Source of the DNA: a filamentous cyanobacterium Phorm 6 | GTDB taxonomy: Bacteria > Cyanobacteriota > Cyanobacteriia > Cyanobacteriales > Microcoleaceae | Assembly (NCBI GenBank): GCA_003003725.1 | Contig: PVWI01000007.1 | Span: forward strand, 1 to 44,072 | Reading direction: 5' to 3' | DNA: 44,072 nucleotides | Part shown: positions 8,057 to 43,387 of the stretch, piece after piece | Numbering within the stretch: position 1 is the first letter of the stretch | How the letters are laid out: every line of letters starts with the position of its first letter | Made by a program: the position numbers and the translations under genes | Notes under the pieces: model-generated | Databases searched by the model: none | What the model was told of the DNA's origin: nothing | Seen by the model: only the letters and a program-made list of their open reading frames with translations

Positions 8057-8257
8057 CCATTGGTGTCAACTTAATCTCAAGCTTAGTATTAGCCTAATGT
8101 TGATCGCGGAGGCCTATATCCCCCCTAACCCCCCTTCTTAAGGGGGGGGACAAGAGTCTGATCGACAGTCCCCCTTCTTAAGGGGGATTTAGGGGGATCT
8201 GGCTTCGGCGATCAACGAGATATACAAAGGATTTCAGACTTAAGTTGATACTAATGG
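8057..8257. mobile_element. 201-bp MITE-like inverted-repeat element
   Basis: The ends CCATTGGTGTCAACTTAA and, on the other strand, CCATTAGTATCAACTTAA match at 16 of 18 positions. Further in, GTTGATCGC(G/C) pairs with its complement, and the centre is a C/G-rich double hairpin (about 8119-8199, CCCCCTT-CTTAAGGGGG). There is no ORF inside. Related cores occur at 19073, 24278 and 42806. The rest of the 400-bp gap between the GT39-like gene and glmM holds only this element and a heptamer array. Confidence 0.7.
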
Positions 8258-18885: not shown

Positions 18886-19225
18886 GAAAGTTGCATTAAT
18901 TTTGGTGGAAAGCTGTCAAATTGGCATACCCTTTAACAAACTACAGAGTTTATTTTAGGTGACTACGGTCATTTACACGCAATATTTGGGGAATTTCGCC
19001 GAAAATTAACTTTGTTGCGGATATTTTTGTTGGGAGTTTTCTTTGTGATTCCACAATCAGATATCCCTGGCACACCCCTTAAAAAGGGGGGAACCGGATT
19101 ATTCTCAAAGTCCCCCTTTTTAAGGGGGATTTAGGGGGATCGAGACTTCGCCTTCTGGAGGATTTTCGGCAGTTTGGGTCGAGAAGTTTTAAGATAGAGG
19201 GTGCCTTTAAATTTTCTGATGACCT
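18886..19225. other. Divergent region lgt/rlmN with a C/G-rich repeat
   Basis: 340 bp without a gene. Positions 19073-19142 hold a copy of the CCCCTTAAAAAGGGG repeat core (two hairpins: CACCCCTTAAAAAGGGGGG, then CCCCCTTTTTAAGGGGGATTTAGGGGGATC). The rest has no recognised feature. Confidence 0.7.
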
Positions 19226-40765: not shown

Positions 40766-41797
40766 ATGAGCATTACAGTTCAGAACGTATCTAAACACTT
40801 CGGCTCCTTTCACGCAATTGACAACGTGAATTTGGAAATTAAAAGCGGCTCTTTAGTCGCGCTATTGGGGCCTTCCGGTTCCGGGAAATCGACTCTTCTG
40901 AGGATGATTGCGGGACTCGAACCGCCGGATACTGGTTCTATTTACCTGATCGGCGAGGATGCTACCCAGCAGTCGGTGCAGGAACGGCATATCGGTTTTG
41001 TGTTTCAGCACTACGCTTTGTTCAAACACATGACTATTAAGAAAAATATTGCTTTTGCGATGGAAATTCGCAAAGTTGCTAAAAACTCAATTAGCAGGCG
41101 GGTTGATGAACTTTTGGATTTAGTGCAGTTGACAGGTTTGGGCGACAGATATCCTTCGCAACTTTCCGGCGGCCAGCGGCAGCGCGTGGCTTTGGCGAGA
41201 GCTCTAGCAGTTCAACCGAAAGTGCTGCTGCTAGATGAACCTTTTGGAGCATTAGATGCTAAAGTTCGCAAAGAATTGCGATCGTGGCTGCACAACCTTC
41301 ACAAAGAAGTTAATATCACCACAGTTTTTGTGACTCACGATCAAGAAGAAGCTATGGAAGTAGCCGATGAAATTGTGGTGATGAACAAAGGTAGAATCGA
41401 ACAAGTTGGCACTCCTGCTGAAATTTACGACAAACCGGCAACAGCTTTTGTGATGAGTTTTATCGGGCCGGTCAATGTGCTGCCGAATACTGCGGGTTTG
41501 TTCGCCAGCAACAGTACAACGGCTCACAAAAATGGAGCCGCTCATTCTGAAGTAGTGTTTTTGCGCCCCCACGACGTGGAAATTCAAACTAAGCCGGAGT
41601 CTGGTTTTGCATTAGCAAAAGTCAGCCGCATCATTCATTTAGGGCGGGAAATTCAAACCGAGTTAGTGTTAGAATCAGATCAGGTAGTAACAGCTTACGT
41701 GAGTCGCGAGCGCTTCGATTCTCTACAGTTAACGCGAGATCAGCAGGTTTACGTCAAGCCCAAACACGCGATGACTTTCCCTGTTTATTCAATTTAA
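40766..41797 (+). CDS. cysA: Sulfate/thiosulfate ABC transporter ATP-binding subunit
   Basis: 343 residues. Walker [10 protein letters not shown] (35-43), Q-loop FVFQHYALF, signature [15 protein letters not shown], Walker [14 protein letters not shown]-loop [10 protein letters not shown]. The N-terminus [25 protein letters not shown] and the [30 protein letters not shown] region with a C-terminal TOBE-like regulatory domain ([11 protein letters not shown]) are typical of CysA. It would couple ATP hydrolysis to sulfate uptake with CysT, CysW and Sbp, none of which is adjacent. A truncated cysK lies 1.8 kb away. Confidence 0.92.
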
Positions 41798-42247: not shown

Positions 42248-43265
42248 ATGTCAGGCTTTGATCCAGCACAGTTCGTTAATGACATTGGGCAACGGCTTGT
42301 ATGGGAGTTCGCAAATGCAAGCAAGGGTGGTACCCCTGGACTGAAGGGGAGCGCGCGCGAACATACGGCACGTGTGCAACTCGTGAAATTATTACCGGCT
42401 CATGTATCTATGGGAACCGGTTTGCTGATCGATAGCTATGCTGGGCAGAGCAAACAACAAGATATTGTTATATTCGAGCGTGACTTTTACCCTGTCTACT
42501 CAATTAATGACGCTCCGGATGTTACCTATTTTCCAATTGAGGGCGTTATTGCAAACGGTGAAGTGAAGAGTTCGGTTAATAAAAAGGATTTATTCAAGGC
42601 ATTGGATAATATTAGGTCAGCTAAGTCGCTTCGCAGGTATGCTCACAAGACTGATGAAGGACTTGGACATCTTGCCTCATTTAGAAATTTCGGGATGGCG
42701 GTTTCCTTCGCCGCCACACCTAGTGATGAATTCAATCAATATCTCAATTTTAGAGATCAGATTTATAGCTCAATACAGTTTACTTAACACTATTTATGCC
42801 CCGGAGATCCCCCTAAATCCCCCTTAAGAAGGGGGACTTTGAGAGCTTTCTTGTCCCCCCCTTTTTAAGGGGGGTTAGGGGGGATCTCTTAAGTGAACCG
42901 TATTGATTTATAGCTTTATTCTTTGTAACTCATTTACCTCTAGTTCAGATGCAATTTTGGACAATCTCGTGGAATATCAACGCCTTCACGGACACGAATG
43001 TATGCCTAATATTATAATATCTCTGAATGACGGATTTATTCAGGGTATGCAGTCGAACAATATGAGGCGACAGTCCTCATTGCTCACCTCTGATAGCTTC
43101 TCATTTGTGCCAGCTTCGGATCGGTGCTTTGCGTACTTAGTCAATCAGCTACAACAACATGTCCGCGAAGCTCGCACTGTCCCGCTTCAAGCACTTGACC
43201 GTTATATGACATCTCTCAATGGCGCACTACCGTCTTGCCAAGAGCGTCGTTTTGAAATTCGGTAG
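42248..43265 (+). pseudogene. DUF6602-like nuclease-fold protein, split by a 135-bp element
   Basis: The start ATG 42248 is preceded by AAGAGGAA. Codons 1-174 read MSGFDPAQFVNDIGQRLVWEF to IYSSI, then the frame ends at a stop inside the inserted element. After the element the same frame resumes at 42906 as IYSFILCNSFTSSSDAILDNL and ends EIR at 43265. Removing bases 42771-42915 (element plus one target copy) joins both parts exactly in frame into 290 codons. The fold call rests on KQQDIVIFERDFYPVY (Asp about 72) and PIEGVIANGEVKSSVN (Glu about 105, Lys about 107), a D...ExK pattern of PD-(D/E)XK nucleases as in DUF6602 proteins. The function is unknown; a defence or restriction-type nuclease is possible. 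Confidence 0.85.
42771..42905. mobile_element. 135-bp MITE-like element with 10-bp target duplication
   Basis: The ends CAATACAGTTTACTTAA and, inverted, CAATACGGTTCACTTAA match at 15 of 17 positions. ATTTATAGCT (42761-42770 and 42906-42915) flanks it exactly. The interior has the C/G-rich double hairpin core (42806-42885) also seen at 8119, 19073 and 24278; no ORF is present. It needs a transposase from elsewhere. Confidence 0.9.
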
Positions 43266-43281
43266 TGCGATCGCCGATCTT

Positions 43282-43387
43282 GTAGGGTGCGTTAACGAAG
43301 TGTAACGCACCATCAAATATACACAAATGTAACGCACCATCTTTATGTTAATTTAAGGTGTGTTACGCTGTCGCTAACACACCCTAC
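43282..43387. repeat. GTAGGGTGCGTTA repeat element
   Basis: Ends GTAGGGTGCGTTA and TAACACACCCTAC are inverted (43282-43294, 43375-43387). Internal GTAACGCACCATC direct copies (43302, 43329). It begins 16 bp after the DUF6602-like gene and is a common type of palindromic repeat in filamentous cyanobacteria. Confidence 0.8.

What the first reader, a model, noticed from the sequence alone, without database searches (positions are those of the whole stretch)
42248..43265. DUF6602-like nuclease gene split by a 135-bp element with a perfect 10-bp target duplication
The element (42771-42905) has 17-bp inverted ends (15 matches) and exact ATTTATAGCT copies on both sides. Deleting the element plus one copy rejoins 290 codons in frame, with the protein continuing IYSFILCNSF. 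This dates the insertion as recent and proves that both flanking ORFs are one gene. A TSD near 10 bp would fit IS4-type transposases, but the family is not established.
Basis: partly seen in the sequence, partly recalled or inferred. Interest (0 to 1): 0.85.

Follow-up and report, generated by a model that had tools for sequence, protein, structure and literature searches.

The report
Miniature transposon that broke a gene
A short, hairpin-shaped jumping element with no gene of its own landed recently in a probable DNA-cutting gene of a cyanobacterium and broke it, which is ordinary, although the element's family is unusual in carrying several unrelated fillings between the same ends.

Summary
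Window 42771-42905 is a 135-bp MITE: 15/17 terminal match, exact 10-bp duplication, one long predicted hairpin. It splits a DUF6602 gene of 290 codons. The draft genome holds dozens of relatives; one copy is identical and has its own 10-bp duplication. An unbroken homologue (293 aa, Komagataeibacter intermedius) aligns to both halves without a gap (67% and 69%), so the two ORFs were one gene. DUF6602 also covers a NucC endonuclease; the motif residues D/E/K lie in the first half and the C-terminal part is cut off.

No such transposase was found in the own draft genome, so the MITEs there look orphaned.

MITE-broken genes in cyanobacteria are known, so the core finding is ordinary. What goes further: these ends enclose several unrelated interiors, and the GGGGG/CCCCC hairpin core here also sits inside elements with other ends (one at 8058-8256) and without recognised ends (19072-19141).

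The parts
42248..42770 (+). 5' part of the broken DUF6602 (NucC-like) gene, with motif residues D72, E105, K107
42761..42770 (.). left copy of the 10-bp target duplication ATTTATAGCT
   Evidence: family-wide check
42771..42905 (+). 135-bp MITE with IS4-type ends (TIR-A)
42771..42787 (+). left terminal inverted repeat
42805..42887 (+). core: GGGGG/CCCCC palindrome shared with elements that have other ends
42889..42905 (-). right terminal inverted repeat
42906..42915 (.). right copy of the target duplication
42906..43265 (+). 3' part of the same gene, out of frame with the first part
8058..8256 (.). 199-bp element with different ends (TIR-B, CATTGGTGTCAACTTAAG) around the same core, 73 of 84 aligned columns identical
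19072..19141 (-). partial copy of the core (61 of 70 aligned columns identical) without recognised TIR-A or TIR-B ends

Best explanation
A non-autonomous miniature element (MITE) was moved by an IS4-family transposase acting in trans. It recognises the roughly 17-bp ends, cuts a TATA-centred target with a 10-bp stagger, and gap repair leaves a 10-bp duplication (the duplication and target are shown by sequence; the biochemistry is inferred from IS4-family knowledge). Here it landed within codon 175 of a 290-codon DUF6602 gene and duplicated codons 172-175. The result is a stop after four whole element codons plus a frame shift, so the protein keeps the nuclease motif but loses about 116 C-terminal residues and is most likely inactive (inferred). 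The insertion is recent. The transposase was not found in this genome, so the copies there may be stranded (inferred from a draft assembly).
For: Ends and exact TSD. In the own genome 40 of 201 candidates were scored; the 40 best listed matches span at least 116 of the 135 bases at 86-100% identity, and one at C53 is identical over 135 bp with its own TSD GGCTATACAA. 52 of 83 distinct elements have exact 10-bp TSDs, with T/A/T/A at positions 4-7 in 47, 41, 45 and 49 of those 52. Complete partner elements: L244:646-2131, 1486 bp, TSD ATTTATTACC, 420-aa transposase frame, PF13006 65 bits against 25 and NF033592 'IS4 family transposase' 185.8 bits against 115; and two 1511-bp copies in G122, 21 bases apart, with exact TSDs TAATATAACA and AATTATAACC, transposases 78% identical to that of L244 over 372 residues and the Y-x2-R-x3-E-x6-K signature in both. 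Unbroken homologue L091 colinear with both halves. The whole element folds as one hairpin, -76.4 kcal/mol, z -8.9.
Against: No PF13006 match and no match to the partner's N-terminal part in the own genome; the assembly has 526 contigs, so a multi-copy IS could be missing. No empty site in a close strain. The unbroken homologue is from another phylum. 31 of 83 elements lack an exact TSD, 7 of them by one base. Two longer copies have the ends but no exact duplication and broken transposase frames: the 1067-bp one in G159 (3 of 10 bases differ) and one in G024 (L245). Mobility was not tested.
Confidence: 0.95

Rival explanations
1. The element was moved by a different transposase still present in the own genome, such as the 464-aa IS4-like frame at C233, and the PF13006 elements only share similar ends by descent.
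For: The own genome holds a PF01609 protein there and no PF13006 match.
Against: A relative of that protein (L117) has other ends, CATTAGTGACAAG..., and a 9-bp duplication GTGAAAATC (read); complete elements with the matching ends and 10-bp duplication carry PF13006 transposases. The ends of the C233 element itself were not determined.
Confidence: 0.08
2. The partner is the Tn5-like transposase found between the same ends in G028 (L109).
For: TIR-A ends and an AGTTATATCC duplication surround a 477-aa Tn5-like frame.
Against: Read: that IS has its own roughly 30-bp inverted ends and a 9-bp duplication (CTTCTTAAG) inside the core, so it is a later insertion into a MITE. No match to this protein in the own genome at E 0.001.
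Confidence: 0.01
3. The two ORFs are separate working genes, or the insert is a tolerated part of the protein.
For: The second ORF has a TTG start at the element's end.
Against: Stop codon and frame shift; the homologue is continuous across the joint.
Confidence: 0.02
4. The insertion is an assembly artefact at a repeat.
For: The draft is fragmented and some contigs end inside such elements.
Against: The flanks on both sides belong to one gene and carry an exact duplication; a mis-join between two sites would not give that.
Confidence: 0.01

Closest known systems
IS4-family insertion sequences (Nterm_IS4 / DDE_Tnp_1, NF033592)
   Same: Ends, 10-bp duplication and a transposase over the curated cut-offs in complete partner elements
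   Different: The window element has no transposase and, by eye, shares only its ends with them
Nezha MITE of Anabaena/Nostoc (Zhou et al. 2008; paper not held)
   Same: Cyanobacterial MITE (similar size recalled) proposed to be moved by ISNpu3-like elements (one passage in PMC3049150)
MITEs breaking genes in Anabaena sp. 90 (PMC3542288, passages)
   Same: 147 MITEs, 15 of them inside disrupted ORFs, and no evident similarity to the ends of that genome's ISs
   Different: Other species; sequences not compared
NucC / DUF6602 nucleases
   Same: PF20247 covers both this protein and a protein annotated as CBASS NucC on a Thauera plasmid; D, E and K of the motif lie in the stretch that aligns with NucC
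   Different: About 290 aa instead of 241, a different C-terminal half, no cyclase gene seen in the little of the neighbourhood examined

Membership tests
MITE | terminal inverted repeats, short, no coding capacity | tested here: met
   135 bp, 15/17 ends, stops in all six frames
MITE | many dispersed copies with target duplications | tested here: met
MITE | a full-length IS with the same ends exists | tested here: met
   (in relatives)
MITE | such an IS in the same genome (usual, not required) | tested here: not met
   draft assembly of 526 contigs
IS4-family derivative | partner transposase of IS4 type (domains; Y-R-E-K signature, which is recalled) | tested here: met
IS4-family derivative | duplication near 10 bp (IS4 group range recalled) | tested here: met
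IS4-family derivative | transposition by that enzyme | not testable with these tools
   needs an assay
Nezha | its own TIR sequence and ISNpu3 partner | not testable with these tools
   paper not held
NucC-like nuclease (the broken gene) | DUF6602 domain and D...ExK motif | tested here: met
NucC in CBASS | cyclase partner beside the gene | tested here: inconclusive
   only one neighbour, the ORF at 40766-41797, was scanned (sulfate ABC transporter ATPase); the contig ends about 800 bp downstream of the gene

The most novel reading that the evidence does not exclude
These IS4-type ends act as an interchangeable shell. In several cyanobacterial genomes the same ends enclose unrelated interiors, at least two of which also occur outside the shell, and one of them sits in shells of two different transposon types. 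New MITE families would then arise by ends and hairpin repeats being reshuffled, not only by internal deletion of an IS. (Odds lowered from 0.4 to 0.35 on recount: three of the interiors were seen mostly or only inside the shell.)
Probability: 0.35. Interest if true: 0.5.

Novelty: new member of a known kind. Interest (0 to 1): 0.3.

Why it matters
It gives a well-bounded case of a gene lost to a MITE and ties a high-copy MITE family of these cyanobacteria to complete IS4-family elements that could be tested. The apparent orphan state in the own genome and the exchangeable interiors bear on how MITEs arise and persist. The broken gene itself (a lone NucC-like protein) is poorly known: a full-text search for DUF6602 in the held library gave 0 papers.

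Tried and rejected
Partner search by PF01609 in the own genome gave 3 matches, none with these ends (up to 4 mismatches) in the loci around them. The Tn5-like protein in L109 looked like the partner and was rejected as a nested insertion. A 2481-bp element in G004 (L234; duplication with one mismatch) has a reverse-transcriptase-like frame, judged by eye to be of group II intron type, between the ends; taken as another nested insertion (no family search was made). The DNA search for the whole gene in relatives was swamped by the MITE, so the protein halves were used. No relative of the unbroken homologue in viral contigs; no match of the second half in plasmids at E 0.01; no match to the element in phages; in plasmids 13 records match, none over 80% or more of the element. 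The structure prediction of the homologue failed (mean pLDDT 32.7 on a 3-row alignment) and is not used. Paper searches on IS4 MITEs in cyanobacteria and on chimeric MITEs (listings only, 5 and 12 papers listed) showed no title or abstract start describing the shell pattern; this is a thin search.

Full report
What is there. The stated coordinates, ends and duplication are exact. The first ORF stops after four whole codons of element sequence; the second begins with the element's last three bases. The insert of 145 bp shifts the frame as well, and the element has stops in all six frames.

One gene. A scan of genome contigs with the first half found one relative, in Komagataeibacter intermedius TF2 (a scan that finds close relatives only). 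Its 293-aa protein matches residues 1-176 of the first half at 67% and residues 2-120 of the second at 69%, both without gaps, and the second match begins at homologue residue 172. A plasmid homologue in Pseudomonas coronafaciens is also one gene, of 281 aa, 42% identical to the first half; its C-terminal part aligns in a multiple alignment but did not match our second half by tblastn at E 0.01. The gene is accessory: 1 of 23 congeners searched has any match, and that is weak; 13 of 386 genomes of the phylum sample match, the own one included.

What the gene is. PF20247 (DUF6602) matches the first half and also a protein annotated as CBASS effector NucC on a Thauera plasmid. PDB sequences of NucC type match at E 5e-7 to 5e-4. 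No NCBIfam model matched either half. The motif residues in the stretch that aligns with NucC are D72, E105 and K107 (their catalytic role is recalled). All lie before the break. Loss of the C-terminal 116 residues most likely kills the function; this is inferred.

What the element is. In the own genome the search scored 40 of 201 candidates; one full-length match is identical. Among 45 distinct elements from that genome that were held with both ends, 26 have exact 10-bp duplications, 5 differ at one base and 14 at two or more. Over all loci held then, 52 of 83 are exact, 7 differ once and 24 more than once; the shuffled control is 0.067%. The target is NNNTATANNN-like. The exact end pattern (CAATACGGTTCAVTTAA) occurs 62 times in the own genome and its reversed control 0 times; 40 of 59 genomes of the family sample have it, and 12 of 291 in the class sample, where the control occurs once, in another genome. 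As RNA the element is one hairpin.

Partner. A 1067-bp element with perfect ends in G159, without an exact duplication, holds a broken transposase with an IS4 N-terminal domain. A search with that part in 61 genomes of the family matched 10, not the own one, and led to L244, a complete 1486-bp element in a congener (G020) with ATTTATTACC on both sides and a 420-aa frame. Two 1511-bp copies with exact and different duplications lie in G122, of another family of the order. Listed Nostocales plasmid relatives of the transposase are 51-55% identical; 3 of these 4 are annotated as IS4 family transposases. One of them (Tolypothrix PCC 7601, L280) has related ends, 3 mismatches on each side, but no matching flanks; in the other two Nostocales loci examined (L279, L282) only one related end was seen. 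The own genome has neither this protein nor PF13006. The genus contains Oscillatoria nigro-viridis PCC 7112: the stretch of G019 contig 2 that I searched is identical, in sequence, place and record length, to its plasmid NC_019730.1.

Beyond the finding: shells and fillings. By simple motif classes the 83 elements fall into 60 with the GGGGG/CCCCC core, 16 with a TCATTGCGAG-type core and 7 others; exact duplications occur in 40, 10 and 2 of them. In G099 the same ends hold yet other interiors: of 7 stretches fetched, 6 show both ends, 5 of these with exact duplications and 1 with one mismatch. Conversely, of 20 core copies fetched from other congeners, 11 have TIR-B ends, CATTGGTGTCAACTTAAG, on both sides (one of the 11, L172, is poor), and 5 more show at least part of such an end by eye (L154, L159, L160, L164, L171); 9-bp duplications are exact in some (L155, L158, L163, L165, L166, L167) and not in others. 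The window holds the core in three settings: TIR-A at 42771, TIR-B at 8058-8256 (flanks 7 of 9 alike), and without recognised ends at 19072-19141. L187 in the own genome has a TIR-A left end, the core and a TIR-B-like right end, which may be recombination at the shared core or a mis-assembly.

Against a strong reading: motif classes are crude, and most loci were found through this element. Counted over the loci held, the core motif lies 56 times inside and 61 times outside TIR-A shells, and GTAGGTTGGGTT 3 inside and 10 outside, but the TCATTGCGAG motif 11 inside and 2 outside, and two further G099 motifs only inside (1 each). So only two interiors are well supported as repeats with a life outside the shell. 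Insertion of one element into another (as seen in L109 and L234) would also give mixed structures. Internal variation is known for Neisseria elements (107 and 155 bp forms, passage in PMC2229807), and small repeats nested in minitransposons were described for Nostoc (Elhai et al. 2008, recalled; not held).

Verdict. The finding is right and now explained: an IS4-type MITE in a NucC-like gene. MITE-broken genes in cyanobacteria are in print (passages, PMC3542288; PMC10969869). Interest is modest for the insertion and somewhat higher for the exchangeable interiors.

Noticed in passing
window 8058-8256: A 199-bp element with different ends (TIR-B) around the same hairpin core as the element of the finding.
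   Followed up: partly
window 43282-43387: GTAGGGTGCGT repeats in inverted arrangement directly behind the stop of the broken gene; similar repeats adjoin lone TIR-A ends in L182, L189 and L191 and interrupt an element in L188.
   Followed up: partly
L187 (G000:C231), from its position 130: Hybrid element: TIR-A left end, shared core, TIR-B-like right end followed by GGCAATGCC, the kind of site TIR-B elements use.
   Followed up: partly
L155-L167: TIR-B elements often sit inside a GGACACGGCANTGCCGTGTCC-like palindrome.
   Followed up: no
L109:301-2023 and L234:151-2631: A Tn5-like IS and a reverse-transcriptase-like gene of apparent group II intron type lie inside TIR-A elements.
   Followed up: partly
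L224:151-180: A 30-bp element made of the two ends fused, without interior and without a matching duplication.
   Followed up: no
L091:281-4764: The closest relative found for this cyanobacterial gene lies in an acetic acid bacterium, beside NA37, RelA/SpoT-domain and HNH genes, which looks like a mobile or defence neighbourhood.
   Followed up: partly
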